From: Bacteroidaceae bacterium | GTDB taxonomy: Bacteria > Bacteroidota > Bacteroidia > Bacteroidales > Bacteroidaceae | Direction: 5' to 3' | DNA length: 64,000 bases | Assembly: GCA_017447625.1 (NCBI GenBank) | Contig: JAFSNB010000024.1 | Coordinates: 1-64,000 of the forward strand | In this document: piece after piece, positions 4,723-23,600 of the stretch | Layout of the letters: each line of letters begins with the position of its first letter | How positions within the stretch are numbered: the first letter of the stretch is position 1 | The notes under the pieces: model-generated | The model's database searches: none | Seen by the model: the letters and a program-made list of their open reading frames with translations, nothing else | Told to the model about the DNA's origin: nothing | Made by a program: the position numbers and the translations under genes

Positions 4723-7700
4723 ATGAAACAACGCTTACTTACAGCAGCACTGCTGCTTGCGGCCACTCTCGCCGCGTGGGCACAGAACTGGACAGCTCCG
4801 GTGGATCCTGCCTCTGGTGTGGATCCCGTGAATGGCGGTATCTACTACATCAAGAATGTGGGATGCGGTCAGTACATTACCGGTGGCAATTCCTGGTCCA
4901 CACAAATTTCAGTATCAAGCGACGGATTGCCTTATATGCAATTAGTCGTGATATCCGCGAACAACGGATCTTACCGTCTTAAGTTGAACGGATCATTCAC
5001 CACCAATGGAAGTGGCGGTACAAGAACACTCACCAACACTTATCTCTTCCGTGACGGTGATCAGAGTGGTTTTATAGACCGTAACAATCAGGCTGAGTGG
5101 AGTTGGGTATTCGCTAAAGACAATAACGGATATTACCGTATACGGTCTTCTAACGAAAGCGGAAATTTTGGAAATGCAGCTAATGAGAATGCGTATGCCA
5201 AAGAACCAGGTCAGGCCGTTGTCTTTAACATGACAGAGGGTGCTGTTGAAAACGTGAAGTATATAGAGTGGGAGTTTATTCCTGTTGACTTGGAGGTTTC
5301 TGGAGAAGATCTCCAACTGTATGCAGCCCGCAAAACCCTTTATGACGAATATGTTGCATCGGTTCAAAGGGCCAACACTGTAGGAGCCGACATCAGCGAG
5401 GCTATTGCCAACGCTGAAACGGTCTATACCAACAGCAACGCTACCATCGCACAATTGGAGGCCGCAACCACTGCCTTCAAGGCTGCTGTGAACAGGGCTG
5501 TGTATGCGGCACAATTCACCGGCACACCAAGTAACCCGCAGGATGTGACAAGCCTTTGTCTTGTGAATCCCACGTTTGACAATGACATCAAAGGATGGAC
5601 AATTACCGTTGGCGGTCAGAACCTGCAGTGGCAACAGCGTACCGACGGAAATATAGACGCAGCCCAGAATTGGGTTCAGATAACCAACTTTATCGAGGCT
5701 TGGCGTCCTGCACCTAATGCTCTTGGTGACGGTACAATCTCACAGACCATCTATGGTCTCCCAGCCGGTACATATAAGTTGGAGTGCGACGCTATGGCCT
5801 GTTTGCAAGGCGGTGAGCCTAGTCCTGAGGAGGCAGTGGAAAATGCCTACATCTTCATCCAAGGCGAGAACAGCGAGATTCGTGAGCCGATTAAGTCTCC
5901 GAATTATCAGCCGAAGCATTGGAGCGTAGCCTTTAATAATCAAGACAGCGATTGGCTCACCTTCGGTCTGAAAGTGGAGAACACCACGGCAAACTGGATT
6001 TCTGCCGATAACTTCAAGATTACCTTCTATGGTCAGGAGATTCTGACTCCGGCAATGGTTGATCTGCAAGGTGTAATCGCAAATGCTAACAAGGCTGTTC
6101 TGTACAAGGGCCAGGAGAGCTTGAAGAGCGCGTTGCAAACCGCGATAAATGATGCTCAGACGGTTGCAGACTCTTTCGGATTGACTGAAGATGAGTATAA
6201 CGCTGCCAAAACATCCTTAGAGACGGCAATGGATGCATACAACGCTTCTGTTGTAAGCTATTCCAATTTAGGGCAGTTTATCAATGAGAAGCAGAACGCT
6301 TATACGACAATAGCGACCCAAGAGGCAGCAGAACCGCTGATTGCCAATCTCCAAACAATCTACAGCGAAGCTCAGTACAACACCGCACAGCTTCAGGAGG
6401 CAATGGCGAAATTCGACGCAGATATGCTGCGTGCCGCACTTGCTGCTCGTGAAAACACCGTATTCCAGAGCGACCTCACAGACTATCTGTCCAATATGTC
6501 GTTCGCAAACTCCATAGATCAGGAGCGCTATCCCAACACTTCTGCAGAGTGGCAGAACGAGACAGAAACCACAGCCTACTGTACAGCCTACACGACGGCC
6601 GAAGTCTGGAATCAGCCTAGGTTCAACATCTTCCGCGAGATTTCCAATATGCCAGCTGGAAAATATGTTATCACGGTACAGGGTGTCTATCGCGAGACCG
6701 CAAACGTGGATAACTATAATAACTATTTAAACGGCGACATTAGTGGTCAGGCCTTCTTCTATGCTAATGACCAAAAGGCTAATTTAGCTAATCTCGCCTC
6801 TTTTGCAGCTACTGACGCTAATAGCGGATGGGCAGATGTCGCAACTAACAACGAGGGCAATACTGTCTATGTTATAAATAACCAGTCCGCGGCAAACCTG
6901 CTCTTCAACGGTGAATATAAACCCGAGACGAAGCAAGCCACTCAGCTGAGGCTGACTGTAAACGTTGCCGAGGGAGAGACATTGCGATTCGGTATTAAAG
7001 GTGAGGAGCTGTTAGACAATGCTTGGGTGGTTTGGAGCGACTTCCGCATCTATGCAGCCGGCACAGACTCACCTGAGAATGTCACTCCGGAGACCTCCTT
7101 GTCTAATATTAATATAGTAGCAACGAAGGAGATTACTATAAAACAGCATCCTCGTACCGATTATAGCAGTAACACGGTGCTGGTTGACATCACAGACTAT
7201 GAGGCAAAGGTTGGTTACCCAATCGACTATGTCAAGAACAACCTCGCCGCTGCCCTCTTCTGTGGTACTTTCGTCTCATCCGAAAGCCAGATTAAGGGCG
7301 ATGTCCTCTCAAATACCCAGACAGCAAGTCAGCTGGGCTGGTGGCTGGGCGCTTGTCAGAACGAACTCAACGAAGAGACCGGAGAGGTCTTAATAACAAC
7401 TTGGGGTGAGACCTGCAAGTATTTTGCAGAAGCCTATTCAATCATTGAGAAGGATGAACAGCAGCCCGATGGCACAACCCAGAAGCACTATTACCTCTCC
7501 TGCAACATAGGCCAATATCCTAACGCCCTAACTGTTGGGCAGAGCTGCTATCACACAGCATACATTATCTTTGGCAACAAGGCTTACGCTGTGAAGTACA
7601 CTCTGAATATCACAGATCCCTCTACAACAAACTTCAATGAACTTGAAATAGTCGGCAATACATCCGTCACGATGGATCAGGGTCCTGGCTACGAGACTGG

Positions 7701-10700
7701 CGAATTCCATCTGGATGTAGATGCTATCGCAAGTCTGTTAGATTGTGATGTTAGTGAGCTGAAAGTTCAGTACTGGAAAGATTCAGAGTACACGCTGTTA
7801 ACAACAAACCGTTCTGCCAAGAACGATGGCGCTTGGCTGAATGCCGACGGAACTCTTGGAGCTTTTGAGAGTGCCCCCGTCTATGTTGAGAACCCCACCG
7901 CCAATGACTATTCTGTTTTCGCTTCCGGAAACTATGAGAATCTTGTAGAGGTAGGCCAGACATATCAGGTGGCGTTCTTCCTCACCAATAGCGAATTGAC
8001 CAAGGGCTATCGCGTGAATGTCAACATCAACATCGTTGAAAAGGACTATGCGAAGGCGTTGGCTTATATAAAGAATAGTGAAAGCTATCGCATCTATGCA
8101 ACTTTGTCTAATAGCAAGTATTATCTGACAACAAACGGAATCCTGACTGATAATAAGGAAGATGCATCTCTCTTCACCTTTACCTCAGTGGAAGCTAACG
8201 GAACTTTGTACAGGATTGGATGGGATCTCGGTTGCGCATTTACGAATCCGACCTTGACTAATGGCTCAAATGGAGACATCGTCAACAATGGCTATCTCAA
8301 TACAAATATTAATAACAACCGCAACGATTGGGAGCGTCAGGTCTTCTTCTATAACGATGAGGCCTTCGCAGTTCGCGCCACAAATGCCAACAGTGCAAAC
8401 TGGGGTGCAAGCACCTACTGGACAATCATAGATAATGGTACATTGCCCGAAGCCGGTTATTCTCTCGACGCAGCATACGTCTGGCATCTGGAGAAGGATG
8501 GCGAGAACGAGTACATTGACCGTGACGAAGCCGTTGCCGGAATCACCGGAGCAGAAGGCGGTCTGGATGTGACACAATGGATAGTCAACCCGACTCCGAC
8601 ATCAAGCTATGAAGGTTGGAATTGGTCTGCTACTACAACTTTCGACCCAGGAAATAACGTTGCAGAATACTGGCAACAGAGCGGAGCTTCATTCTCCCAG
8701 ACTATTCCTTATCTGCCCGCCGGTTATTACATTCTGACGGCTCAAGCCTTCACCCGCACAAATATGACGGCTTACCTCTCAATGACTGTTGGCGAAGAGG
8801 AGAATAAGGTGGAGCTGGCAACTGTGGCAAAAGCTGTCGTTGACAGCCGCGCTCAGGCTAACACTTGGTTCAACGAAGGAAATGGAATCAACGAAGTGCG
8901 CTTCCAGGTTCCCACCAGCGGCGAGGCTACAATTAAGTTGACTGCCGACAACACAACAAGTGACTATTGGCTTGTTTGGCGCGGCTTCACACTGCGCTAT
9001 GTCGGCATAGAGGGCTTTGACGCATTCGACCAGACGCTCTGTCCGGCTCTTCTTGCTGAAATCAGCCAGAAAGCAACCGATGCATCCGCACTCTTAGAGC
9101 AGAAAATGGACGCAGAGGTTAAGACAGCCCTCGAGGCATTGATTACCGATGCCGGAGACCTTGCCAACGAATCATATAACGTACTTGTTGCATTCAAGAA
9201 GGCTCTGCTTACAGGCATCCAGAATGCCAACAATAGCATTTCATATTATAAAACACTCGTGCCATATATCACAGAGGCAGAGGAAATCGTTGCTAAGCTC
9301 GATAAATTTGCCGCTGCCAAGGAGGCTGTCGCAGCCCACTTGAACGATATGACCACAGCCTACAACGGAGGCACGGTAACTACCGAGATGGTTGAAACCT
9401 GGATGGGTAAAGCTACGGCTCTCGCACGCGAGAATATGGACTGGACGAGTGTAGATGAAGGCACAGACATTTCCTTCCTGATTCAGAACCCGCACTTCAA
9501 GTTCGGACAATACGGTCCAAACGAGAGTTCAACGTATTACGGAAATGAGGAATCAACTCCAGGATGGACATTGAACAGCGGAGCTATCAAGGAACTGCGT
9601 GCGGCTACTCACAACATCGAGGCCTGGCACCAGATGTTTGACTTCAGCCAGACTCTGCCGAATATGCCGGCCGGCGTTTATGACTTGACACTACAGGGCT
9701 TCGTCCGCCACGACAACGCAGAGGATACAGACAAGACTTATCTCTATGCCGGCGTTTCAACACGTGCCATCATGCAGTGTACTGATCAGTGGAATACAGA
9801 GCCTATCTATTATGCTGGTGTCGAAATGTTGGGTGATGACCACTACGACGTGGAACATCAGCAGGAGGAAGGTCCTTCTCACTGGGTGGATAACGGTATG
9901 ACAGGCTCCTACTATTGGTTCCAGACCGTGAATCCCAATGCTGTAGAGCAGGGCGGCCAGGAAGGTGACTGCTATTATACGAACCACCTGAAAGTCGTTC
10001 TGGCTCAGGATGGCAACTTCACCATCGGCCTCCACTGTGACACCAACACCGACTGGGTCATATGGGATAACTTCCAGCTGAAGTATCTTGGCAATCCTGC
10101 CAGCATTTATACCGAAAGCATCTATGAGAAGCTGAACACTCTGAAAGATGACATTGATGCAAGCACTATGCCTACCGCAGCTACAAGCCAACAGCTCTAT
10201 TACGACATGAGCGAGGTGGCTGATGAAGCAATCGCAAGTGGCAAAGAAGAGAATTGCCTTCAGGCGATTGAAGCCCTTGACGCTGCCATTGCTACAGTGC
10301 AGACAACTAATGCTAAGGCAGAGGAACTCATCAGCAAGACTAATACAATAAGTGCAAGTGTTGCAGCCAAGCATAGTAGTGATCGCTCTGTTGATGTTGT
10401 AATAGATGAAGCCTATACATATATTAATAAGGTAAAGGTTTTCGCTGACGTAGCTGCTATTCAAACTCTTTGCGACAATTTGGATGCATCATTCGCTGCT
10501 TTTGAAGCTGCAGAATTCAATCCTGACGTAATCACGACCCTGATTTCTGAACTGCGCACTCGCCAAAATGAAAAAGTCCTCAACGAAGAGCTTTATCAGG
10601 AGATTGACGCAGCAGTAGCACAAGCACAGTATTTGTATGACAGCATGGGAGCACAGATATATGCACCTCAAAACGGAGAATCATATTATATCTATTGTGA

Positions 10701-13206
10701 CAATGATGAGCCACAGTGGTATTACAACAATGATGGCACGTTAGCAGTAAGCAATTCTGTGAATAAGAACGATGATGCGTATCTATGGACTTGTTCCTAT
10801 GATGGCAATTATTGGACATTCGGTAACAAAGCCGGTGGCTACTTAGGATTTAAGGAAATATCCACCTCTCCTGAGAGCTATATCATTGGAACGGAAGTTG
10901 GTTCTCAAATGGTTGTTCGCCAGGGATGTGTCACAATGTTTGCCGTGAATGCACAAGGTGTCGGTAAATACTTAGTGATGGGTAGCGATGGACACTTTGA
11001 CCAATCGTCAATTGCAGGTTATAATAAGGTAACTACCGACTACAGCTCTGACTTTGTGTTTGTTGCATCAAATTCACTGGTTGTTGCAACCAACAATAGC
11101 GATGCAAATCTGAAAGCTTGCATAGACAGTCTGACGACTCTTTGCACCAAGGCCGACGCATACCACGCCAGCGTGGAGGCTCAGCTTGAAGAACTGCCGG
11201 TAGGCAAGGATTTGACAGCCGTTCTGATGAACCCGTCTTACAATCTTGGTGAGACCGGTTGGGTTGCCGACAACATGAAGCAGCAGGGCGGTGCAACAAT
11301 GGGTTGCGTAATCACCAGCTCGTATGAGAGTGACGGCGTTACTCTCTCTACCTTCGCAGAAAGCTGGAATGGCGGCGGTCAGCCCGTACAGGATGCTTCA
11401 ATCCGCCAGACCACCCGCGTTGAGTTGCCCGAAGGCACTTACGCTCTCGATGCAGACATTATAACTCAGAGCGCTGACGCTTTAGTTCAAAATGTGTTTA
11501 TGTTCATCTTAGTTACAGACGAGCAGACACAGGAGACCACAATGGTCAAGCAGCCTATCCGTGTTAACGGCGGTCAGCCAGGACACAGCCAGATGGTATT
11601 CAATCACAAGGGCGGTAAGCTGACCTTCGGCGTTTGCTACGAAAATACCAACGCCACATGGGTCGGAATGGATAACTGGAAGCTCTCTGTATCCACCGCT
11701 CCCAATGCAACAGACATCGCTATCCTCGCTCAGGCATACGAGCAGATGAAGGGTACCCAGGGCGATGTGCTCGGATGGAATCTGGAAACTAACCCGACGG
11801 GCCTTGCCGGAGTTATTTACACCAATGGCCATGTGACAGCAATAGACCTCGCAGGCTATGGACTCGACGGACAGTTCCCGTCAGCTCTGCTTATGCTCCC
11901 GCAGATCGAAAAGATTGATTTGCATAACAACGGCCTACAGGGTAGTTTAGATGCTTCTTTGGCTGCCCTGGCTCAGATGGCAGGCACCCAGACCCCGACA
12001 TCAGTCTTGAAGAAACTGAACATCTCGGACAATGATCTCTCGGGCAACATAGGCCTTATCGGAGCCGTCTGTCCGCAACTGACTCAGCTCCTGGCCGCCG
12101 ATAATCACATCAGCGGACTTATGCCAGCATTGCCTGAAGGCATTGACCAGAGCGACTTCAGTAAATTCGACTTGCGTAACCAGACGGTCAGCGAGCCATT
12201 TACGTTCAATATGGCAGAGACAGACATGCAGGCATTCCTTGAAGCTACGCCGACGCTTGTCACCTACCCGTTGCTCCAGAAGCAGGCAGAACTTGTCTCA
12301 ATGGAACTCAGAACGCTTGAAGAAGACGAATTCGAAAAGTATAACTCCGCTCTCTTAAAACTGTCAACGGAAGGAGCCGTTATATCAGACTTAGATCATG
12401 AGTATCGCGGTCCTATTTCGGCACAGTTTGAGTTAACACTTACGGAAGGACCTGTACAAGGTTCAACCCTCATGTGCAACCTCTTGTTTGCTCCTGGCGA
12501 TGCCAACCTCTCCGGTGCCGTGAATGTGTTTGACCTCCAGACCGACATCAACTACATCTTCGGTGATGAAGTGGAGATGTTCAACTTCACAGCTGCCGAT
12601 CTGTATGTTGACCGCAACATCAACGTTCAGGACATCGTACTCCTCGTTGACACGATTATGAGTCAGGAGGAAGAGACTCCTGCTGGAGTGAAGAGCTTCG
12701 ATCCTACCCTCATTGCAGAGGAGGAAGAGACCGAGACAGACGCACAACTGTTCTGGCGTGGACACGAACTGGTGCTCAGTTCTAAGGTTCCCGTGGCTGC
12801 AGCCGACATCCGCCTCTCTGCTGACGATGTTGAATGGAATATTCCTGGTTTCAACATAACGGCAAAGCACGGCAGGGCAATTATCTACTCTCTCGGAGGC
12901 TCCGAACTGCCAGCTGGTGAAACCGTGATTGCTACATCTCGCGGCGGCAACTCCGTAATCAGTTCAGCTGTCCTTTCCAATCGTAAGGCTAAGCCCGTAA
13001 GCGTAGGTATCGCTGGTAAGAGTATTCCTACTGGAATTGCAGGTATCGATGCTTCTGGCCAGTGGCGCATCGCTACCGTCGGCGGCACCCTTGTCGCTCA
13101 GGGCAACGGCAATGCTCAAGCCGCAAGTGCAGCAGCCCGCCTGCAAAAGGGTATATACATTATTAATATAGAAGGAAAATCCTCTGTTAAGTTCTCAATT
13201 AAATAA
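4723..13206 (+). CDS. Giant secreted multidomain protein with ricin-like, galactose-binding-like, helical, LRR and dockerin-like modules
   Basis: About 2827 residues with a signal peptide (MKQRLLTAALLLAATLAAWAQ). Residues about 30-160 (GGIYYIKNVGCGQYITGG...) resemble a ricin/beta-trefoil-like module. At least five jelly-roll-like modules share a QT..LPAGxYxL signature near residues 338, 635, 1325, 1640 and 2226. They alternate with helical FIVAR-like stretches. Leucine-rich repeats follow at about 2340-2485. At about 2590-2648 is a dockerin-like pair of calcium loops: DANLSGAVNVFD, then DLYVDRNINVQD. The C-terminus (KGIYIINIEGKSSVKFSIK) resembles the short sorting-type tails of Bacteroidales secreted proteins. 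No catalytic motif was recognised, so an adhesive, carbohydrate-binding or scaffold role is inferred. It is the first gene of a three-gene operon, 18 bases before the cohesin-like protein gene. Confidence 0.75.
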   Translation: MKQRLLTAALLLAATLAAWAQNWTAPVDPASGVDPVNGGIYYIKNVGCGQYITGGNSWSTQISVSSDGLPYMQLVVISANNGSYRLKLNGSFTTNGSGGTRTLTNTYLFRDGDQSGFIDRNNQAEWSWVFAKDNNGYYRIRSSNESGNFGNAANENAYAKEPGQAVVFNMTEGAVENVKYIEWEFIPVDLEVSGEDLQLYAARKTLYDEYVASVQRANTVGADISEAIANAETVYTNSNATIAQLEAATTAFKAAVNRAVYAAQFTGTPSNPQDVTSLCLVNPTFDNDIKGWTITVGGQNLQWQQRTDGNIDAAQNWVQITNFIEAWRPAPNALGDGTISQTIYGLPAGTYKLECDAMACLQGGEPSPEEAVENAYIFIQGENSEIREPIKSPNYQPKHWSVAFNNQDSDWLTFGLKVENTTANWISADNFKITFYGQEILTPAMVDLQGVIANANKAVLYKGQESLKSALQTAINDAQTVADSFGLTEDEYNAAKTSLETAMDAYNASVVSYSNLGQFINEKQNAYTTIATQEAAEPLIANLQTIYSEAQYNTAQLQEAMAKFDADMLRAALAARENTVFQSDLTDYLSNMSFANSIDQERYPNTSAEWQNETETTAYCTAYTTAEVWNQPRFNIFREISNMPAGKYVITVQGVYRETANVDNYNNYLNGDISGQAFFYANDQKANLANLASFAATDANSGWADVATNNEGNTVYVINNQSAANLLFNGEYKPETKQATQLRLTVNVAEGETLRFGIKGEELLDNAWVVWSDFRIYAAGTDSPENVTPETSLSNINIVATKEITIKQHPRTDYSSNTVLVDITDYEAKVGYPIDYVKNNLAAALFCGTFVSSESQIKGDVLSNTQTASQLGWWLGACQNELNEETGEVLITTWGETCKYFAEAYSIIEKDEQQPDGTTQKHYYLSCNIGQYPNALTVGQSCYHTAYIIFGNKAYAVKYTLNITDPSTTNFNELEIVGNTSVTMDQGPGYETGEFHLDVDAIASLLDCDVSELKVQYWKDSEYTLLTTNRSAKNDGAWLNADGTLGAFESAPVYVENPTANDYSVFASGNYENLVEVGQTYQVAFFLTNSELTKGYRVNVNINIVEKDYAKALAYIKNSESYRIYATLSNSKYYLTTNGILTDNKEDASLFTFTSVEANGTLYRIGWDLGCAFTNPTLTNGSNGDIVNNGYLNTNINNNRNDWERQVFFYNDEAFAVRATNANSANWGASTYWTIIDNGTLPEAGYSLDAAYVWHLEKDGENEYIDRDEAVAGITGAEGGLDVTQWIVNPTPTSSYEGWNWSATTTFDPGNNVAEYWQQSGASFSQTIPYLPAGYYILTAQAFTRTNMTAYLSMTVGEEENKVELATVAKAVVDSRAQANTWFNEGNGINEVRFQVPTSGEATIKLTADNTTSDYWLVWRGFTLRYVGIEGFDAFDQTLCPALLAEISQKATDASALLEQKMDAEVKTALEALITDAGDLANESYNVLVAFKKALLTGIQNANNSISYYKTLVPYITEAEEIVAKLDKFAAAKEAVAAHLNDMTTAYNGGTVTTEMVETWMGKATALARENMDWTSVDEGTDISFLIQNPHFKFGQYGPNESSTYYGNEESTPGWTLNSGAIKELRAATHNIEAWHQMFDFSQTLPNMPAGVYDLTLQGFVRHDNAEDTDKTYLYAGVSTRAIMQCTDQWNTEPIYYAGVEMLGDDHYDVEHQQEEGPSHWVDNGMTGSYYWFQTVNPNAVEQGGQEGDCYYTNHLKVVLAQDGNFTIGLHCDTNTDWVIWDNFQLKYLGNPASIYTESIYEKLNTLKDDIDASTMPTAATSQQLYYDMSEVADEAIASGKEENCLQAIEALDAAIATVQTTNAKAEELISKTNTISASVAAKHSSDRSVDVVIDEAYTYINKVKVFADVAAIQTLCDNLDASFAAFEAAEFNPDVITTLISELRTRQNEKVLNEELYQEIDAAVAQAQYLYDSMGAQIYAPQNGESYYIYCDNDEPQWYYNNDGTLAVSNSVNKNDDAYLWTCSYDGNYWTFGNKAGGYLGFKEISTSPESYIIGTEVGSQMVVRQGCVTMFAVNAQGVGKYLVMGSDGHFDQSSIAGYNKVTTDYSSDFVFVASNSLVVATNNSDANLKACIDSLTTLCTKADAYHASVEAQLEELPVGKDLTAVLMNPSYNLGETGWVADNMKQQGGATMGCVITSSYESDGVTLSTFAESWNGGGQPVQDASIRQTTRVELPEGTYALDADIITQSADALVQNVFMFILVTDEQTQETTMVKQPIRVNGGQPGHSQMVFNHKGGKLTFGVCYENTNATWVGMDNWKLSVSTAPNATDIAILAQAYEQMKGTQGDVLGWNLETNPTGLAGVIYTNGHVTAIDLAGYGLDGQFPSALLMLPQIEKIDLHNNGLQGSLDASLAALAQMAGTQTPTSVLKKLNISDNDLSGNIGLIGAVCPQLTQLLAADNHISGLMPALPEGIDQSDFSKFDLRNQTVSEPFTFNMAETDMQAFLEATPTLVTYPLLQKQAELVSMELRTLEEDEFEKYNSALLKLSTEGAVISDLDHEYRGPISAQFELTLTEGPVQGSTLMCNLLFAPGDANLSGAVNVFDLQTDINYIFGDEVEMFNFTAADLYVDRNINVQDIVLLVDTIMSQEEETPAGVKSFDPTLIAEEEETETDAQLFWRGHELVLSSKVPVAAADIRLSADDVEWNIPGFNITAKHGRAIIYSLGGSELPAGETVIATSRGGNSVISSAVLSNRKAKPVSVGIAGKSIPTGIAGIDASGQWRIATVGGTLVAQGNGNAQAASAAARLQKGIYIINIEGKSSVKFSIK

Positions 13207-13224
13207 CCTCTGCCTGATTCGACT

Positions 13225-16200
13225 ATGAAAACGAAACATTATATTCTATATGCGGTGGCTCTGCTCATGAGCATTGGCCTCGCTCACGCACAGAACGTCA
13301 ATAAGCTCTATATCCCAGAGCTGACGGCTCTGCCCGGAACCAACATCACAGTTCCCGTCTATGTGGATAACACGGACGAGCTGGTAGCGGTGCAGTTTGA
13401 CCTCACCGTTCCCGAAGGTTCTACAATCAACACCCAGTCGGCACAGCTCGCAAGCCTGCGAGCCGCCGACCACAGTGTGACCTTCCGCGCCATGGGTAAC
13501 AACACCTACAAGGCGCTGGTCTATTCTCCAACCAACGCATCCCTTAAGGGAAGTGCCGGAACGTTGCTGACAGTGGAAATGAGCGTCTCCCAGTCTTACA
13601 CGGTAGGGCAGGAGGGGTTAAGCATCACTCCCAGCAACGTGGTCCTCTCCATGCGCGACGGCTCGAACGTGGTCAGTGAGGCCTCTGCCGCCCAACTCAC
13701 CATTATCAAGGGTCCGGACCTCATGGTCACCGGCATAACGACAGATGCCACCACCTATCGCCCGTTGGGCGAAATGACTATCCACTGGAACGTGGTTAAT
13801 AACGGTCAGAAGCCGACACAGGCCGGCTGGACCGAGGAAGTCTCCATCGTCAATGCCAAAGGTAAGGTGACGAAGATTGCCACAGCCTCTGCTGACGAGA
13901 CCCTCAACGTAGGCCAGGCTATAGCTCGCCAGACCACAATCGTCCTGCCCGAGATTCTCGAAATGGACGGAGAAGCTAACATTCAGGTTGAGGTCGTTCC
14001 TCTTCCCACCACCGGCGAGAACGAAGCCGACCGCGCTAACAACAAGGCTCAGTCCGAGCAGGCTATCACTCTGACGAAGTACCTGAAGATGGAAATGTCT
14101 TCACCCGTAACGGAGCCGTTCTATGATATCTATGGCAACCGTCTGCCGGTGAAGATAACACGCACGGGCGACAACACCGTAGCACAGATTTTCACCATCA
14201 CCCCGTCACGCTCAGACAGCCGTCTTAAAATCCCCTCGGAGGTCACGATTGCCGCTGGCCAGTCTGCCACGACATTCTATATCGACCTGACAGACAACAA
14301 CGTTCTCGACGATGAGTCATTGGTTACAATCACCGTTAGCGGCTATGGGTACGATGCCGTACAGAGCGACCTTGAGGTCATTGATAACGAGCACCCGACT
14401 ATTACCGTAACGACTTCTAACAACGACCTGCACGAGGGCGACACCTTTACGTTGACATTCACCGTGGATCGCGCACCCGAGAATAACCTTGTTATCACTG
14501 TAAGTGACGACAGCCGCGGACGCTTCAGCTATCCAACAACTCTCACGATTCCTGCCGGACAGACCTCTGCCACTCTCAACGTGACAGCTGTCAATGACAA
14601 CGAGCCTCAGCTCGCAGCTATTTATGAGTTCACGGCAACAGCTTCTGGCTACAACTCCGGAAAGGTTGTGGCAACGCTCGACGACGACGATATGCCAGAA
14701 CTGGAATTCACTCTGGAGCCCACATCCGTGAAGGAGGACGACGGCATAATCTGTGTTCACGCATACGTACGCCGTACAGGTAAGATCTCGAACGTCGTGA
14801 CTATCCGTCTTTCCGACGATTCTAACGGTCAGATCTACTACGACCGCACGCAATATGAGATGCCGAAGGGCGCAGAGGTGATAGACTTCTACCTCGGTGT
14901 CAATGACGATAATCTCGTGAACGGAGACCGCACGGTGAACATCACAGCTGCCGTCTGGGTTTCGTCCTGCTCATGTAACGCTTCCGGCGAAAGCGCAGGC
15001 CACAAGACCGCACAGCTGACGATTCTTGACAACGACGCTCCGGCACTTGGAATCAGTAGCTCCAACCAAACTGTCAAAGAGGGTGAGAGCGTCACCGTCA
15101 CCGTGTCCCGAAACGACCAGACAACAGCCGACTCACCTCTGACCATCAACGTCACCACTGATGACGATGCAGCTTTTGCCTCGTTCAATCACACAGTGGT
15201 TATCCCTGCCGGCAGTATGTCTGCAACGCTGACCCTTAGAGCTCAGAGCAACGATGTGCAGAACGACAGCCGTGGCATTAGCATCATGGCAAGCGCCGAA
15301 GGATACAGCACAGCTACCACATTCGTCAACATCACAGACCAGACTCTGCCGGATGCAACTGTAACGCTGAGCGCCAACCCGTCGGAGGTGATTATCGAGG
15401 GCGACTTCGTGTTCAATATCTCCGTAAGCAACCAGGGAGCTGCACCGCTACCTGCCGGAACGGCTGTGAACTTCAGCGCCTTCAACGTGACGAAGAGTTT
15501 CGTTACCTCTGTACCCATAGTTGTTGGAGGTCATGAGAACTTCAAAGTCACGGTGAAAGCTCCGTCTGTGTTGGGTTATGCCACCTGTTATGCCGCTGTG
15601 AACGGCGACAACAAGGTGACAGAACTGAACACCTACAACAACACCGCTTCTGTCCGTGTGCGCACACTGTCTCCATTCACCGCCACCGTTCAGCTTGACA
15701 AGGATGTCTATGAAACCGGTGAAAGTGTTCAGATCAGCGGAACCCTCAGCGGACAGATGATAGAGAACGCCGATGTCGAAGTCTATGTAATCAATGAGGG
15801 CGGACGCCAGGTATTCACAACCAAGGCAGATGCAGAGGGCCACTTCACCGCAAGCTACACTCCCTACACCGCTCAGATTGGTCACTTTAAGGTGGGTGCC
15901 CGCTTCCCGAACGACAGTAAGGAGGACGAGATGGCAGGCTTCGAGATTTATGGTCTGCGTCGCACGAACGCAAACTATCCTATCCTGCATGATTTGGTTG
16001 TTGCCGGTAATAAGGTCAGCGGCTCTGTGGAATTCTACAATCCCAGCACTCTGAGTCTCACTGGCGCAAAGGCAGAAGTGACATCCAAGCCGGAGAATCT
16101 GACCTTCAACGTCAAGATCAACGAGACTCTGGCTGGCAACAGTTACACCAGACTGACTTACGACTTCACCCCCGAACAGGCTTCACCGACCGACGATTGG

Positions 16201-19200
16201 GAGATTGTTTCAATCAAGCTGACCACCGCTCAGGGTGTTACTCAGGAATTCCCCGTCCGCTTCCATGCCGTGAACCCGAAGGCAGACCTCAGAGCTTCCA
16301 CAAGTGAGATTAAGAGCACCATGCTCAAAGGCGGTTACTTCGATTACACCGTAACATTCACCAACAGAGGTCAGGGCGAGACTGGAACAATTTCTCTGTC
16401 TCTTCCGAACTTTGTCACCAGTCCCACTGGAACAACGATAGCTTCTCTGAAGCAGAACGAGTCTGCCAGCGCAGTGCTGCGCTTCACGCCGACCGAGGAC
16501 ATGCAGCTCAACTCTCCGCAGACTGGTCTGATAGCGTTCAACTGCACCAACGGCGACGGCGGCCGAATCAGCTATAATATGACTCCGGTATCCGATGCAA
16601 AGGGTACGCTTATCGTCGATGTAACAGATGAATACACTTATCTGACTGAAGACGGAAAGCACGTGGGTAACGCCACTGTTGAGGTGCTGAATCCTGTGAC
16701 CAATGCAACTGTTGCTACTGGTAAAACCAACAGAAACGGCATCTGCACCTTCCAACTGAACGAAGGTTACTATAAGATTAATGTATATGAGGCTTCTCAT
16801 GAAAGCATTGAACCGCTTACCAAATTGGTAAGTCCGGGTACTGAGAACAAAGTGAATGTTAATCTTTCAATCAGCGCAATCAAGGTGTCTTTGTCAGTGA
16901 AGGAGATTGAAATCGAGGATGAATATCTCATCACGACCAACGTCTCTTATCAGGCTAACCTGCCTGTGCCGACAATAGTGCTCTCGATGCCTGAAATCGA
17001 TGCAGAGAATCTGCAGCCGGGACAGTCGCTCTTCTTCAACGCCACCCTCACCAACCACGGTTTGGTCAAGGCTATCAACACCACGCTGAGTATGCCTGAA
17101 GACCTGAAGAACTTCATCTTCGAGCCTCAGGAGCCAAGTACAGATATTGAGATTCCCGCTCAGTCAGCTGTCACTATTCCTATCAAGGTGACCCGCAAGG
17201 GTGCCGACGGTGGTGAGGTGAAGGCCTTCGGCCCGCGCCGTGCCGCTGACATCAACGGCGATCCCTGTATTGTCAAGCTCAACCTGATTTACTACTGGAA
17301 GTGCGGCACCGACACCAAGTTCAACCAGTACGAACGCACACTGCGTATCGGAGCTTGCAAGATTTCCTCAACTTCAGCTGAACTCCCGTCGAGCTTTATT
17401 CCGTCTTCTTCATCTGGTAGCACCTCTTACGGTGGTTACAGCGGTGGCGGTGGCGGAGGCTATATAAGCGGCCCCTCTACTGGAAGCAACAATGCAACCT
17501 ATGGAGCTACTCAGAACACAAGCATCGTCAGCGTAACTGAGGAAACTGGCTGCGAACCCTGCCAGGCCGCTTTCATGCAGAAGATGACCAAGTGCGTCGT
17601 GAAGCGTCTGCCTCTCATCAAGGAGGTTCTGGGCTTCGTTGACGACGTACAGTGCGCATACGACGTGATCAACTCTGGCAGTTGGTGCTGGGTAGAACGT
17701 CTGCCGATTATCAGCAAGTTCGTGGAATACCGCGACTTCTACAAGGAGTGCATATCTCCGCTCTTCATGACTTGCGGCGGCGCTATGCCTGAAGGCAACG
17801 GACTCTTCTCCAACCGCACTCCGGGTGACGAGGACAGTGATATGCCTGCTTACATCATCCGCTATCAGGATAAGACCGTAGCTGCCACTAACGCCATCGC
17901 TGCCGCTATGCAGCAGGCTGATGAGGTTCTGGGTGACACCCTCTGGCACAAATACAACACCAATGTAATGTCAGACGTGGCCTTGAATATCAAGGGCCTG
18001 CTCGATGGTACTCTCGATGAGGAAGGATTCCTGCAGGCACGTCCGGACAGCGTTGATAGGCAACTCTATACCAACCTGTCAGAACGTCTGCTCAACACAA
18101 TCAATGGGTCCGCAGATGAGAATGTCATCAATCTCGATAACGTAAAGGCTCTGGAGCAGTACATAGTTAATGCACAGAATCTTGCAGACGAAATCCATAC
18201 TCCTCGCATCGGCGACTTCTATCAGAAGGCTGAGGAGGAAGTGATGGAAGGTCTCGATAAGGCAACGAAGAATGTCTGCGCTACCATCAGCCTCGAGTTT
18301 GAACAGCAGCTCGTGCTCACACGTCAGGCTTTCCGCGGAACACTGACAGTGGTCAACGGTCACGAGACTACCGCCATGTCCGACATCAAGCTTCATCTTG
18401 AGGCTCGCAACACCACCACAGGTGACGTTGCAACTGACGACATGATGGCAATCAAGTTTGAGACTAAGGACACCTTCGGCGGTGAGAACAACTTCACCGG
18501 AGGATGGACGCTGGCAGCCGGTGCCACCGGACGTGCAACGGCTCTGTTCGTACCCAGTGATCTTGCAGCTCCCGAGGCTCCGACGAAGTATGCTTTCGGC
18601 GGTTATCTGACTTACCACGATCCGTTCTCAGACTCCGAGGTTACCCGTCAGCTGACTCCTGTCGTTCTGACCGTCCGTCCGACAGCCAAGCTCGAACTCA
18701 CCTACTTCCTGCAGCGCGACGTCTATGCAGACGATCCGATGACTGATATAGTCGAAGAGAGCGAGCCTGCTGAGTTTGCACTGCTCGTGAACAACGTAGG
18801 CTTTGGCGAGGCAACCCGCGTACTGATGCTCACACAGCAGCCTACGGTTGTTGAGAACGAGCGCGAGGTTGACTTTAAGATGTACTTCGAGAGCGGCTCA
18901 GTCAACGGTAAGACCGAGTCTCCCAAGCTGGAGAACGGTGCCCTGAGCAGCGACTTCGGCAATATTGCTCCTCACTCCACAGCCTACGCACAGTGGTGGC
19001 TGAAGAGCAACCTGCTCGGTAAGTTCGAAACATACGAAGTTACGGCAGAGCATATACAGAAGGAATACAGCAGTCTCATTGATATGGACAAGCTCTCAAT
19101 CCACGAACTCATTCACAGTGTCAAGTTGAACGACGACAACCGCGTCGGCTTCATCGTGAACGATGACGAAGACGAGGATGACAAGGCAGACCACATCTAC

Positions 19201-20673
19201 GTCTCCGACGGCAACATCTACGCTCTGAATATGGCAACAGCCAGCGCAAGCAAAGAGGATGAGAACAAGTATATCCTCACCGTCAACGCAGACGCTCCGG
19301 GTTGGGCTTACGGCGCAATCAAGGATCCGACCAATGGCAACTCTACAGTCAAGAGCGTCATCCGCCGCAGTGACGGAACATCAATCGATGTCCGCAACTT
19401 CTGGCAGACCAGCCGCACTATCAAGGACGGTCAGGACTGGATGCGTAACCCGCTCGTCCAATTCTCCGACTCTCTGAAGAGCACCTCTGAGACTTATGTG
19501 ATTACCTTCGAGCCCAAACCGACGGATCCGCTCACTGTTGCTAAGTTCGAGAATGTTCCTGAAAATCCTACTACAGAGCCCGTGGAGAAGGTAATCGTAC
19601 GCTTCAACAAGGAACTCTACCGTCTGGATGAGTCCTGCTTCCGTCTTACCAACCAGGGTAAGCTCGTGGAGAACTACACCGTGAACGAGGTCGGTCCTGC
19701 TGCCGTAGAGGTAGCTCTCGGCGAGGCTTCAAACAGCAACGGACTCTTCTCACTCACAGTTCTCACCTCGAGGATGATGGACAAGAATGGCTACTATGGC
19801 ACCAATGACCAGAAAGTCGATTGGGTTCAGGAACCGCAGCTGCCCACTGTATCCTTCAACAAGTCTGAGGTGGAGACCACCTTCGGCAAGGACTTTGAGA
19901 AGCCGCAACTGACCACGACCCTCACCTCAGAGCCAACCTACACGAGTAGCAACCCGCTCGTTGCTGAGGTGGATCCTGTCAGCGGTGACGTGACAATGAA
20001 GGCTGTAGGTACGGCCGACATTACAGCCACCCTGAAGTCTGAGCTGGCACATGCAGAGATTCCTGGCACCTACGCCCTGAATATCCTCCAGCCTGAGGGC
20101 TACAAAGAGTCTGGTGACGTAGAATTCGTTGAAGTAACGATACCAGATGGCTGCAATTCAATAACCTTCTGCTCGCCGTGGCCTCTTGACTTCAATAATA
20201 TGGCACAGACATTCAAAGCTTATATTATAACAGCTATCACCAATGACGATAAACTGCAATGTGAGGCTGTCACGGAAGCTCCTGGAGGTTCAGGTCTCGT
20301 CATTAAGGGTACGTCTGGCGCTACATACCAGATTCCTGTCAGAACCACAAACAAGACTCTTGAGGACAATGGCCTTATCGGTACCCTTGCTCCCACATAC
20401 GTAGTGGATAAGACCGAGGACGGTGTTCGCAACTACTATATGAGAGGTGACGTATTCGTTCCTATGCAGACTTCTGTTCTGCCTGCTGGACAGGCTTATC
20501 TCCCGGTTCGTTCCAACGCTACAAGCCTCTCTATCCAGTACTCTGATGACATCAATGGTCTCAACGCTGACGGTGAGGCTCCCGTATGGAATCGTCTTGA
20601 CGGAACCCGTACCACGAAGCCCGTACGCAACGGAGTCTATGTCCGCGAGGGTGAGAAGGTTCTTGTCAAATAA
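13225..20673 (+). CDS. Giant secreted protein: N-terminal cohesin-like domain, CARDB, Calx-beta repeats, Ig-like domain
   Basis: About 2482 residues with a signal peptide ending near LAHAQ. Residues about 24-160 resemble a cohesin domain (ITVPVYVDN, VAVQFDLTVPEG, LKGSAGTLLTV). A CARDB-like domain spans about 165-285. Several Calx-beta repeats at about 285-690 are recognised by DNEHPTITV, LDDDDMPELEF and LDNDAPALGI. Another CARDB-like domain follows. A Gly/Ser-rich linker (near 1405-1420) precedes a Cys-rich segment at about 1440-1520. A Big_2-like Ig domain lies at about 2207-2290. The tail GVYVREGEKVLVK matches its neighbours. Cohesin plus Calx-beta suggests a calcium-dependent surface scaffold or adhesin. 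It lies 18 bases after the dockerin-bearing gene and 12 bases before the next. Confidence 0.75.
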   Translation: MKTKHYILYAVALLMSIGLAHAQNVNKLYIPELTALPGTNITVPVYVDNTDELVAVQFDLTVPEGSTINTQSAQLASLRAADHSVTFRAMGNNTYKALVYSPTNASLKGSAGTLLTVEMSVSQSYTVGQEGLSITPSNVVLSMRDGSNVVSEASAAQLTIIKGPDLMVTGITTDATTYRPLGEMTIHWNVVNNGQKPTQAGWTEEVSIVNAKGKVTKIATASADETLNVGQAIARQTTIVLPEILEMDGEANIQVEVVPLPTTGENEADRANNKAQSEQAITLTKYLKMEMSSPVTEPFYDIYGNRLPVKITRTGDNTVAQIFTITPSRSDSRLKIPSEVTIAAGQSATTFYIDLTDNNVLDDESLVTITVSGYGYDAVQSDLEVIDNEHPTITVTTSNNDLHEGDTFTLTFTVDRAPENNLVITVSDDSRGRFSYPTTLTIPAGQTSATLNVTAVNDNEPQLAAIYEFTATASGYNSGKVVATLDDDDMPELEFTLEPTSVKEDDGIICVHAYVRRTGKISNVVTIRLSDDSNGQIYYDRTQYEMPKGAEVIDFYLGVNDDNLVNGDRTVNITAAVWVSSCSCNASGESAGHKTAQLTILDNDAPALGISSSNQTVKEGESVTVTVSRNDQTTADSPLTINVTTDDDAAFASFNHTVVIPAGSMSATLTLRAQSNDVQNDSRGISIMASAEGYSTATTFVNITDQTLPDATVTLSANPSEVIIEGDFVFNISVSNQGAAPLPAGTAVNFSAFNVTKSFVTSVPIVVGGHENFKVTVKAPSVLGYATCYAAVNGDNKVTELNTYNNTASVRVRTLSPFTATVQLDKDVYETGESVQISGTLSGQMIENADVEVYVINEGGRQVFTTKADAEGHFTASYTPYTAQIGHFKVGARFPNDSKEDEMAGFEIYGLRRTNANYPILHDLVVAGNKVSGSVEFYNPSTLSLTGAKAEVTSKPENLTFNVKINETLAGNSYTRLTYDFTPEQASPTDDWEIVSIKLTTAQGVTQEFPVRFHAVNPKADLRASTSEIKSTMLKGGYFDYTVTFTNRGQGETGTISLSLPNFVTSPTGTTIASLKQNESASAVLRFTPTEDMQLNSPQTGLIAFNCTNGDGGRISYNMTPVSDAKGTLIVDVTDEYTYLTEDGKHVGNATVEVLNPVTNATVATGKTNRNGICTFQLNEGYYKINVYEASHESIEPLTKLVSPGTENKVNVNLSISAIKVSLSVKEIEIEDEYLITTNVSYQANLPVPTIVLSMPEIDAENLQPGQSLFFNATLTNHGLVKAINTTLSMPEDLKNFIFEPQEPSTDIEIPAQSAVTIPIKVTRKGADGGEVKAFGPRRAADINGDPCIVKLNLIYYWKCGTDTKFNQYERTLRIGACKISSTSAELPSSFIPSSSSGSTSYGGYSGGGGGGYISGPSTGSNNATYGATQNTSIVSVTEETGCEPCQAAFMQKMTKCVVKRLPLIKEVLGFVDDVQCAYDVINSGSWCWVERLPIISKFVEYRDFYKECISPLFMTCGGAMPEGNGLFSNRTPGDEDSDMPAYIIRYQDKTVAATNAIAAAMQQADEVLGDTLWHKYNTNVMSDVALNIKGLLDGTLDEEGFLQARPDSVDRQLYTNLSERLLNTINGSADENVINLDNVKALEQYIVNAQNLADEIHTPRIGDFYQKAEEEVMEGLDKATKNVCATISLEFEQQLVLTRQAFRGTLTVVNGHETTAMSDIKLHLEARNTTTGDVATDDMMAIKFETKDTFGGENNFTGGWTLAAGATGRATALFVPSDLAAPEAPTKYAFGGYLTYHDPFSDSEVTRQLTPVVLTVRPTAKLELTYFLQRDVYADDPMTDIVEESEPAEFALLVNNVGFGEATRVLMLTQQPTVVENEREVDFKMYFESGSVNGKTESPKLENGALSSDFGNIAPHSTAYAQWWLKSNLLGKFETYEVTAEHIQKEYSSLIDMDKLSIHELIHSVKLNDDNRVGFIVNDDEDEDDKADHIYVSDGNIYALNMATASASKEDENKYILTVNADAPGWAYGAIKDPTNGNSTVKSVIRRSDGTSIDVRNFWQTSRTIKDGQDWMRNPLVQFSDSLKSTSETYVITFEPKPTDPLTVAKFENVPENPTTEPVEKVIVRFNKELYRLDESCFRLTNQGKLVENYTVNEVGPAAVEVALGEASNSNGLFSLTVLTSRMMDKNGYYGTNDQKVDWVQEPQLPTVSFNKSEVETTFGKDFEKPQLTTTLTSEPTYTSSNPLVAEVDPVSGDVTMKAVGTADITATLKSELAHAEIPGTYALNILQPEGYKESGDVEFVEVTIPDGCNSITFCSPWPLDFNNMAQTFKAYIITAITNDDKLQCEAVTEAPGGSGLVIKGTSGATYQIPVRTTNKTLEDNGLIGTLAPTYVVDKTEDGVRNYYMRGDVFVPMQTSVLPAGQAYLPVRSNATSLSIQYSDDINGLNADGEAPVWNRLDGTRTTKPVRNGVYVREGEKVLVK

Positions 20674-20685
20674 AAACCTACAAAT

Positions 20686-23600
20686 ATGAAAGCAATGCAT
20701 AAATCGCTTCATTTGTGGCTTATGTCCCTGCTGCTCCTTGCGGGCAGCGGGGCTTACGCCCAAGGCGAAGCGGAGACCGATCTGGCAGAGACACTGCTCA
20801 CGAACCCTTCATTTGAGGAAGACTATCCTTTGGAGGAGGCCACTGGCAGCGTCAGTGAAATGAATTATGTTACTGGTTGGGAATCTAATGAAGATGCTCT
20901 GTCAGGAACGACCTATCACGTCGGCGGTGTATTCGAGATTGGCGGTCCCTCTACCACTTTCCTTGCTCACACTAACGGACAGCCGCCTTCAACCAATCCC
21001 GATGGCGGTACAACTGGTCAGGTGCTCGGTTTCCTTGGCGGCTACGGCTCAGAAGTCTGGTACCAGCAGGTAATAACTCTTGCTCCAGGCAATTACCGTC
21101 TGGAAATTCCTGTCTATAACGCTACTGGCACTGCGGCGATAGCCAAGAACCAGATTGGCTTCATCGCAGACAACGGACAAGAGTTTTTTCAGAGCATTAC
21201 TCAATATCCTGTAGGCGTGTGGAGCAACGAGATTATCGAGTTCACCATCATGGAAACCACGACCGGACACATACGTCTGGGTTATACTGCAAACCAGGGG
21301 AACACAAGCCTTCAGAACCAGCCCCACCTCTTTGTCGATTACGTGCGTCTCTACGCTACGTCGCGCTACGTACCGGCACCTACGTTCAGCCAGAAGAACA
21401 ACCTCGTCACCATCTCCTGCACAGAGCAGACGGCTGTTATCCGATACACAATCGACGGCAGCCAGGCCACCATAGAGAATGGCGAAATCTATTCCGGGCC
21501 TTTCTCCGTACCTGACGGCACAATAATAAATGCAGTGGCTGTAAGCGGAGCTGACAAGAGTGAAATGAGCAGTTTCACCTTCCACTACCGCAAATACGAC
21601 CCACCTACACTCAGCATCGACGGAACCGCAACTGCTGAATATATCTCCGGACACTCATATTATCTGCTGAATGTAAATTCCGGACAGTTCCTCACCGCAG
21701 GCAACAACTACGGTACGCAGATGAGTATAACCAAGGATGGCTTCACCGACACTGCCAATCCTCCGTTGCTCATTGAGATCATGGATTCTGTTATTCAAGG
21801 CCCGACCATCGTAATGAATGGACAGACTCTGCGCGTGAACGGCACCTACACCGTAACCTACGGCAAGGGTTCTACGGCGCAGGTCTCCAACTCTTATCTT
21901 TTCCGCGACGGCGCCTACGGTTATGTTGATTGGAACAATCAGGAACAGACTCTGTGGATGCTCTTCCGCGATGGAGAATTCTATCGTCTGCAGAGTCATG
22001 AGGGCTATAGTGCAGACTATGCCACACAGTTTGTCGGCTGGGACGGGATGTACCAGAACACCGCCCTCAGTATGAATCTGAGTGCTGACGACCAATATAC
22101 CGAGTGGGCTCTCATCGAGTCACAGAACGTCAACTCTTCTTCCATCGCTCTCTACGATGCTCAGAAGACACTCTACGGTCTGCTCCTCACGGCCGATTCT
22201 CTCGGCATAGCCACAGAGAATTTTGGTGAGATATATAAAGATGAGAACTCAACTGTAGAGACACTCAATGAGGCTGCTACCCAGCTCCAGATGGCCGTTA
22301 ACCTGAACAACTACAACGGCCTGTGGGACAACGCTTCATTGGACAACCCGATTGATATCACCGCGACATTCGTCCAGAATGCCGACTTCGATCTCTCTGC
22401 TGAAGGATGGACGCTTGCAAACGGAGCCTCTTACCATAGCGCAGTTGACGTCTATACAAACAACGGCTCAACTCTCACCCGTCTCGGTTCAACCACAGAC
22501 GAGAGCGGAAACCCAGCCCGCCTCAATTACTTCGTTGAGTCTAATGGCACCGCAAGTATGAGCGTAAGCCAGCGCATCTCCATGTTGCCGCCGGGCCTCT
22601 ATCAGCTTCGTGTGAATGCTGTTGCCACAAACGGTGGAAAGGGTGCAAGCGGAGTGGAGATGTATGCTAACTACGCATCGCGTGTGGCAAATGTCACAGC
22701 CAGCGCAATCCGCAACCTCACCACAGCTGAGTCTCCGGAGAACTTCAACGTCTATTTCTTCCAGGAGCGCGACTTCGCTCCCGAGATTGGCGTGCGCGCA
22801 TCCAGCTCAGATGCCACGTGGATTGCAGCCGACCACTTCCGTCTCTTCTATCTCGGTACCGAGAACCCGGACTTCCGCTTCAACGCTACCTTCTGGGGAC
22901 AGGACAGCCTGAGTGTGGTCAGCACAGCTGCATTGCATGAAGGCGACGCAATTACTGTTCCCAACGCTCCCGATGTGGAGGGCTACACCTTCGTTGAGTG
23001 GGATCAGGAAATTCCTGCCACGATGCCTCCTTACGACCTCGACATCCGCGCTATCTACACTGTGAACCAGTACAAGATATCCTTCTTGGTTGACGGCGAC
23101 ACTATTGACAGCCAGATTTATGACTACGGCACCGTATATGCCGTTCCCGAAGTCACTGTACCTGCAGGCCACTCCTTCTCCGGATGGATTGGTATGCCAG
23201 CCACGGAGACGATGCCCGCCCGCGATGTCGTGGTAACGGCTTCGTTCATCAAAGGTGCCTACACCGTTTCCTATTATATAGATGGCGAATTGTACAAGGT
23301 TGTCGGTTACGAGAGTGGTGACTCTATTGCCGTTGAACCCGATGCCGTTCGCGAGGGCTATACCTTCAGCGGTTGGCCTAAACTGCCTGAGGTTATTGTA
23401 GATCAGAACTATGAAGTAAGCGGTTCCTTCACCGTAAACTACTACAAGCTCACTTTCGTCTGCCGCGGTGAGGTGGTTCGTGAAGACAGTATAGCCTATG
23501 GCACTCCTATTGTCGCTCCCAGTGTACAAGCCGGACTCACAGAGTACCACGCCGGTTGGAATCCAGCCCTACCCGCCACGATGCCAGCTGAGAACCTCGT

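What the first reader, a model, noticed from the sequence alone, without database searches (positions are those of the whole stretch)
12490..13720. Dockerin-like and cohesin-like domains at the abutting ends of two giant secreted-protein genes
The first giant protein has two calcium-loop segments of dockerin form (DANLSGAVNVFD and DLYVDRNINVQD, residues about 2590-2648). The next gene, 18 bases on, begins right after its signal peptide with a cohesin-like domain (VAVQFDLTVPEG, LKGSAGTLLTV). Cohesin-dockerin pairs hold cellulosomes together in Firmicutes, while paired use in Bacteroidales is little described. The two co-transcribed proteins may bind each other at the surface, giving a cellulosome-like or adhesive scaffold. 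Domain likeness is read by eye; the interaction is inference.
Basis: partly seen in the sequence, partly recalled or inferred. Interest (0 to 1): 0.75.

Follow-up and report, generated by a model that had tools for sequence, protein, structure and literature searches.

The report
Dockerin–cohesin hook linking neighbouring surface proteins
Two giant exported proteins made by neighbouring genes of a gut bacterium end and begin with matching halves of a known protein clip, and related bacteria keep those halves together across the same gene junction, so the two proteins probably snap together into one long surface structure.

Summary
P0001 carries a dockerin (isolated domain 25.2 bits, Pfam cut-off 22.9). 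P0002, 18 bp downstream, starts after its signal peptide with a divergent cohesin (19.5 bits, below the 24.1 cut-off; 24 of 30 aligned orthologous domains match Cohesin at E up to 0.05). Profiles of both rank cohesins and dockerins first among solved structures.

I fetched 80 P0002-type loci with a stalk stretch holding neither domain. Of 70 testable, 58 of 58 with an N-terminal cohesin have a dockerin near the end of the upstream gene; 0 of 12 others do (strictly 0 of 10, two being frame-broken). On a tree both features change together four times, two on well-supported branches. Dockerin and cohesin distances correlate at 0.79, partly through linkage. Some relatives form chains (dock | coh…dock | coh); in 12 of 12 two-link loci similarity recovers the gene-order pairing.

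Best reading: P0001 docks onto the cohesin tip of the P0002 stalk. Binding is inferred; structure prediction was off. Not a cellulosome here: two dockerins over the cut-off in a 73%-complete genome. New variant of a known kind.

The parts
4723..13206 (+). P0001, 2827 aa exported protein (first gene; signal peptide read by eye): DUF4859 and unassigned modules, then a C-terminal block LRR - dockerin - reduced cohesin-like module - tail
11719..12177 (+). leucine-rich repeats of P0001 (residues 2333-2485)
   Evidence: PDB sequence matches to plant LRR receptor kinases, best 4.7e-9; LRR_4 matches 32 of 34 first-gene proteins, window included, at E up to 0.01
12493..12657 (+). dockerin of P0001 (residues about 2591-2645)
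   Evidence: Pfam Dockerin_1 25.2 bits as an isolated domain, 24 bits in the genome scan, 16.3 bits within the full protein; top PDB profile matches are dockerins
12499..12534 (+). first calcium-type loop DANLSGAVNVFD
   Evidence: direct reading; alignment A9
12598..12633 (+). second calcium-type loop DLYVDRNINVQD; position 3 is Y, not N/D
   Evidence: direct reading; alignment A9
12769..13029 (+). post-dockerin module, a shortened cohesin-like domain in the same chain as the dockerin
   Evidence: hhalign against the cohesin alignment: probability 93.7, E 2e-7; Pfam Cohesin listed for 0 of 30 members
13057..13191 (+). C-terminal tail of P0001, weakly like a type IX secretion sorting domain
   Evidence: TIGR04183 15 bits, E 0.018, below the cut-off of 23
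13207..13224 (+). 18-bp intergenic gap
13225..20673 (+). P0002, 2482 aa exported stalk protein (second gene; signal peptide read by eye): cohesin, then DUF5006 and CARDB (over their cut-offs) and weaker MG2-, LapA-, Big_2-like matches, C-terminal tail read by eye
13300..13704 (+). N-terminal cohesin of P0002 (residues about 26-160)
   Evidence: Pfam Cohesin 19.5 bits, E 0.0012, below the cut-off; 24 of 30 orthologue-alignment members match at E up to 0.05; profile hits cohesins in the PDB
18277..19242 (+). conserved stalk region of P0002, used as bait for related loci (contains neither cohesin nor dockerin)
20686..24876 (+). P0003, 1396 aa exported protein, third gene 12 bp downstream; no cohesin or dockerin matched; sister locus L089 has a 1396-aa neighbour in the same place

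Best explanation
The two genes encode two halves of one surface structure. P0002 is a long stalk with a cohesin at its N-terminal tip. P0001 is a large head protein (LRR plus unassigned modules) with a dockerin near its C-terminus. After export, the dockerin of P0001 binds the cohesin of P0002, presumably with calcium, so the head is displayed on the stalk. The junction pair is inherited together. In some relatives the principle repeats: a protein ending in a dockerin is often followed by a gene that starts with a cohesin, giving short chains whose order would match gene order. Shown: dockerin and cohesin homology, conserved junction, joint change, correlated evolution, tandem links. Inferred: binding, calcium dependence, surface location, which end is anchored, the ligand of P0001.
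For: Dockerin over the Pfam cut-off as a domain and in the genome scan. Cohesin supported through orthologues and PDB profile hits. With a bait that lacks both domains, 58 of 58 N-cohesin stalks have an upstream dockerin and 0 of 12 others do (Fisher 9e-14, not corrected for kinship). Without the two frame-broken rows, the joint state changes four times on the stalk tree, in agreement in 69 of 69 rows. Outside the bait pair, 8 of 13 neighbours of C-terminal-dockerin genes start with a cohesin against 2 of 129 others. Dock-cohesin distance correlation 0.79, against 0.46 for the cohesin with its own distal stalk; partial correlation 0.39, the highest in the matrix, against 0.15 for the cohesin with the part in between. 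12 of 12 two-link loci recover the gene-order pairing.
Against: No binding or structural evidence: structure prediction was off. The window cohesin is below the Pfam cut-off and alone finds no cohesin in the PDB up to E=10. Correlations fall along the DNA, so linkage explains much of them, and the excess of dock-cohesin over cohesin-next-module is not distinguishable from zero (-0.01 to 0.09). Column-level coupling gave no readable interface. Only two independent changes lie on well-supported branches once the frame-broken rows are dropped (three with them), too few for significance. Eight stalks have an internal cohesin-like domain and no upstream dockerin. Five of 13 non-bait C-terminal-dockerin genes are not followed by an N-terminal cohesin. 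Dockerin loop 2 lacks the usual residue at position 3. A cohesin-like module follows the dockerin in its own chain.
Confidence: 0.68

Rival explanations
1. Cis pairing: the dockerin packs on the shortened cohesin-like module that follows it in the same protein, or on that module of another P0001 copy, giving an internal cap or a P0001 polymer. The P0002 cohesin serves something else.
For: The post-dockerin module is cohesin-related. Dockerin and post-dockerin distances correlate at 0.73. The genome's other over-cut-off dockerin also sits just before a cohesin in one chain, on a GH31 protein.
Against: It does not explain why the upstream dockerin is present exactly when the next gene starts with a cohesin. 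The module appears shortened: the alignment begins at cohesin profile position 23. Dock-cohesin correlation is higher (0.79) and highest in partial correlation. Dockerins at the very end of chain proteins have no following module (L076 second gene, L079 second gene).
Confidence: 0.16
2. Linked cargo without direct binding: dockerin and cohesin are ancient folds in a conserved operon, kept together only by co-transcription and block transfer.
For: Correlation decays along the DNA from pre-dockerin to distal stalk; pre-dockerin, post-dockerin and next-module segments also correlate with the cohesin (0.71-0.75). Few independent changes on the tree.
Against: The same rule at other gene pairs and recovered pairing in two-link loci are less expected from linkage alone, although position classes conserved by descent could produce the latter.
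Confidence: 0.13
3. A cellulosome: P0002 is a scaffoldin that collects many dockerin-bearing enzymes.
For: Relatives have multi-cohesin proteins (L079 three, L088 eight and five) and some have many dockerin matches. The own genome has a GH31 protein with a dockerin.
Against: P0002 has one cohesin; no catalytic family among the Pfam hits of P0001; two over-cut-off dockerins in the 73%-complete genome.
Confidence: 0.03

Closest known systems
Cohesin-dockerin pairs of Firmicutes cellulosomes (Pfam PF00963/PF00404; solved chains such as 5n5p, 5nrk/5nrm, 4uyp)
   Same: Same two domain families by profile search. In some relatives one protein carries a cohesin at its start and a dockerin at its end.
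   Different: Here one cohesin and one dockerin sit at the junction of two adjacent genes of a Bacteroidales-type genome; no catalytic Pfam family in the dockerin protein; second calcium loop altered.
Non-cellulosomal cohesin- and dockerin-like modules (Peer et al. 2009; seen only as cited in passages of PMC4300822 and PMC6030884; the paper is not held)
   Same: Cohesins and dockerins outside cellulosomes; PMC4300822 passages mention dockerins with leucine-rich modules.
   Different: A conserved dockerin-to-cohesin gene junction was not seen described in the listings.
Ruminococcus adaptor and anchoring scaffoldins (PMC7480376 passages list cohesin-dockerin scaffoldins; the rest recalled)
   Same: Links that carry both a cohesin and a dockerin and can be joined into larger assemblies.
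   Different: In the relatives here gene order tracks link order; anchoring would be by an outer-membrane or type IX route, which is inference.

Membership tests
Dockerin (PF00404) | Pfam score over the curated cut-off | tested here: met
   25.2 against 22.9 bits as an isolated domain; 24 bits in the genome scan; but 16.3 bits within the full-length protein
Dockerin (PF00404) | two duplicated calcium loops with D/N-type ligands at positions 1, 3, 5, 9, 12 (pattern recalled) | tested here: inconclusive
   loop 1 fits with S at position 5; loop 2 has Y at position 3, as W, Y or H does in many of the 29 aligned rows
Cohesin (PF00963) | Pfam score over the curated cut-off for the window sequence | tested here: not met
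   19.5 against 24.1 bits, 18.4 in the genome scan, not listed for the full protein
Cohesin (PF00963) | homology to cohesins through orthologues | tested here: met
   24 of 30 aligned members match PF00963 at E up to 0.05, best 2e-9; the profile finds 5n5p at 2.3e-8 and 2xdh at 0.0016
Cohesin (PF00963) | jelly-roll fold with a dockerin-binding face | not testable with these tools
   structure prediction switched off
Cohesin-dockerin pair | calcium-dependent high-affinity binding of the two modules | not testable with these tools
   only comparative evidence
Cellulosome | scaffoldin with several cohesins collecting several dockerin-bearing enzymes | tested here: not met
   one cohesin in P0002, two over-cut-off dockerins in a 73%-complete genome, no catalytic family among the Pfam hits of P0001
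Type IX secretion cargo | C-terminal sorting domain over the cut-off and a T9SS in the genome | tested here: inconclusive
   TIGR04183 15 bits against 23 for P0001; SprA_N search of the genome found nothing, but no control rang

The most novel reading that the evidence does not exclude
Gut Bacteroidales build surface fibres by a gene-order code: an exported protein ends in a dockerin that fits the cohesin starting the next gene's product, so an operon read from first to last gene specifies a daisy chain from head to stalk to anchor, with a distinct asymmetric dockerin class (DLQ ... INVQD) for the head-stalk link.
Probability: 0.43. Interest if true: 0.85.

Novelty: new variant of a known kind. 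Interest (0 to 1): 0.7.

Why it matters
[quoted passage not shown] A conserved dockerin-cohesin junction in dozens of gut Bacteroidales assemblies, with an operon of the same kind in a record titled Xylanibacter rodentium strain PROD (L122), would show that this group uses the clip to assemble giant surface proteins from separate genes. It gives a direct, cheap binding test and a possible source of new orthogonal cohesin-dockerin pairs.

Tried and rejected
Cellulosome reading: rejected for this locus. Column-level coupling: about 41 effective sequences, not interpretable as an interface. Single-sequence PDB search of the window cohesin up to E=10: mostly antibody chains, no cohesin. P0002 against the PDB up to E=0.05: nothing. 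T9SS check by SprA_N: no hit, but no control rang, so it says nothing. The tail regex is crude and carries no weight.

Rows dropped or partial: of the 80 stalk loci (153 matched, the best 80 were returned), 10 could not be tested (6 stalks open at the 5' end, 3 without cohesin and without an upstream gene, 1 with cohesin but no upstream gene). Alignments took part of the 58 junction loci: A6 33, A7 29, A8 29, A9 28 of 58, plus the window. A5 left out L103 and L168, and the first-gene row of L106.
Full report
What is there. The window is contig C13, 1-64000, of a 2.56-Mb, 73%-complete genome. Related loci with names are assemblies titled Bacteroidaceae, Prevotellaceae, Prevotella, Muribaculaceae and other Bacteroidales, many from rumen or other gut samples by title; the closest is L089, 78% identical in the stalk. 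Three exported giants lie head to tail on the + strand: P0001 (4723-13206), P0002 (13225-20673) and P0003 (20686-24876), with 18 and 12 bp between them. Signal peptides were read by eye.

Dockerin. Residues about 2591-2645 of P0001 match Dockerin_1 below the cut-off when the whole protein is scanned (16.3 bits) but above it as an isolated domain (25.2 bits) and in the genome scan (24 bits). A profile of 29 dockerins of this gene (window and 28 of the 58 junction loci) finds dockerins first in the PDB (5nrm_B 6.7e-5, 4fl4_A 1.1e-4); 24 of the 29 match Dockerin_1 at E up to 0.05. The class is asymmetric: loop 1 is usually followed by LQ, and loop 2 often carries W, Y or H at position 3 and ends INVQD.

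Cohesin. P0002 residues 26-160 match Cohesin only weakly (19.5 bits, cut-off 24.1). Of 30 orthologous domains (window and 29 of the 58), 24 match Cohesin at E up to 0.05 (best 2e-9). Their profile finds 5n5p_A (2.3e-8, only a partial stretch), 2xdh_A (0.0016) and 4uyp_A (0.0049), then weaker chains. Related proteins elsewhere pass the cut-off clearly (L079, 1.9e-17). Alone, the window sequence finds no cohesin in the PDB.

Genome context. Over-cut-off dockerins: two in the genome search. Cohesin matches up to E=10: three places. Each of the two dockerins is beside one of them: in this window across the gene junction, on C33 within one protein with GH31 domains.

Is the junction conserved? I searched the genome collection with a stretch of the P0002 stalk that contains neither domain; 153 places matched and 80 loci were returned. 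With local profiles built and applied, 70 have a complete stalk start and a same-strand gene ending within 250 bp upstream (or overlapping slightly). Of these, 58 of 58 with an N-terminal cohesin have a dockerin in the last 400 residues of the upstream gene; 0 of 12 others do. Two of the 12 (L112, L138) look frame-broken. Eight of the 12 have a cohesin-like domain further in; in the four that I read (L109, L114, L133, L159) it lies behind InlB-like repeats (by eye) and the upstream protein shows no dockerin. On a stalk tree the joint state changes six times, or four without the two broken rows; three, or two, of these are forced by well-supported branches. The two traits agree in 71 of 71 rows (69 of 69), but so few independent changes cannot reach significance. 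The stalk occurs in 24 of 139 genomes of the genus, own genome included.

Chains. Some relatives repeat the rule: L076 dock | coh...dock | Ig-coh-dock | coh; L073 dock | coh...dock | coh; L079, L080, L081 and L083 dock | coh-coh-coh-dock | coh; L122, L127, L128, L135, L158 and L163 have two links each. L082 lacks a cohesin in its third gene, and L084 has three cohesins but no second dockerin. Leaving the bait pair aside, 8 of 13 neighbours of a C-terminal-dockerin gene start with a cohesin, against 2 of 129 other neighbours; 5 of 13 do not follow the rule.

Co-evolution. For 59 pairs (58 and the window) dockerin and cohesin distances correlate at 0.79; the cohesin correlates with its own distal stalk at 0.46, the dockerin with that stalk at 0.41. 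Other segments show a gradient along the DNA (cohesin with the post-dockerin part 0.71, pre-dockerin part 0.75, next module 0.75), so linkage contributes much. In the partial matrix dock-cohesin is the strongest link (0.39, next cohesin-next module and next-next2 at 0.37), while the part lying between them has 0.15 with the cohesin. In 70% subsamples the excess of dock-cohesin over post-cohesin (0.02 to 0.13) and over dock-post (0.01 to 0.13) stays above zero; the excess over cohesin-next does not (-0.01 to 0.09). In 12 of 12 loci with two links, similarity to the other loci's pairs prefers the gene-order pairing to the swap. Position classes conserved by descent would give the same result, and near-copies are included. 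Column-level coupling was not interpretable.

The third actor. The segment after the dockerin is a shortened cohesin relative (hhalign 93.7%, E 2e-7), although Pfam Cohesin is listed for 0 of 30 members. A cis interaction is therefore a serious rival.

What P0001 may do. In 34 first-gene proteins (window and 33 of the 58) the conserved columns lie in a C-terminal block LRR - dockerin - module - tail, while the rest varies. The P0001 LRR matches plant receptor kinases (4.7e-9). No catalytic family is among its Pfam hits. In L079 the first gene is a subtilase, so the head can be an enzyme elsewhere.

Literature (passages unless said otherwise). PMC5831590: cellulosomal components not identified, consistent with other Bacteroidetes. 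PMC6071333: cohesins in certain Bacteroidetes, dockerins abundant in some Bacteroidetes bins. PMC10266427: dockerins in Bacteroidales single-cell genomes, cohesin in a Christensenellales one. PMC8810776: no cellulosome, by cohesin and dockerin domains with cellulases, in the capybara gut. PMC6118326: cellulosomes reported mainly in Ruminococcaceae. PMC7480376: a Ruminococcus cellulosome. PMC4300822 and PMC6030884 cite cohesins and dockerins outside cellulosomes; the cited Peer et al. 2009 is not held. PMC12484212, PMC12871809 and PMC4189754 gave nothing on this junction in the passages seen. The listings of searches showed no title or abstract start that describes this gene junction; the library is open-access only, listings were partial, and most listed papers were not opened.

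Conclusion. The most likely mechanism is direct docking of P0001 on P0002. That step, calcium dependence and surface location remain inference.

Noticed in passing
L069 2458-6414 (own genome, contig C33): A protein with GH31, fn3, F5/8, dockerin and, about 20 residues on, cohesin matches in one chain. Open frames of similar length with the same dockerin-cohesin order occur in G018 contig C40 and G054 contig C39.
   Followed up: partly
L088 6477-17741 (genome G075, same order): Adjacent proteins with eight and five cohesins by the local profile, InlB-type repeats and a Por secretion tail, in a genome with 38 dockerin matches: a candidate Bacteroidales scaffoldin system.
   Followed up: partly
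L079 3443-11153: A subtilase with a dockerin is followed by a three-cohesin-plus-dockerin protein and a single-cohesin protein; similar cohesin/dockerin layouts in L080, L081 and L083, and the first two genes in L082.
   Followed up: partly
L109, L111, L114, L121, L133, L136, L159, L093: Stalk variants with an internal cohesin-like domain and no dockerin in the upstream gene (four of the eight read); the partner, if any, is unknown.
   Followed up: partly
G024: 27 dockerin matches but no Pfam Cohesin match at E up to 1e-3, although cohesin-like places appear.
   Followed up: no
L122 1-10460: Dock | coh...dock | coh genes in a record titled Xylanibacter rodentium strain PROD, the one locus of the 80 whose title names a strain.
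   Followed up: partly
L096 and L134: Stalk genes in assemblies titled Erysipelotrichaceae and Roseburia; perhaps binning errors rather than transfers (L096 is identical in the stalk to L097, titled Paraprevotella).
   Followed up: no
window 11719-12177: The P0001 LRR is closest, among solved chains, to plant receptor kinases.
   Followed up: no
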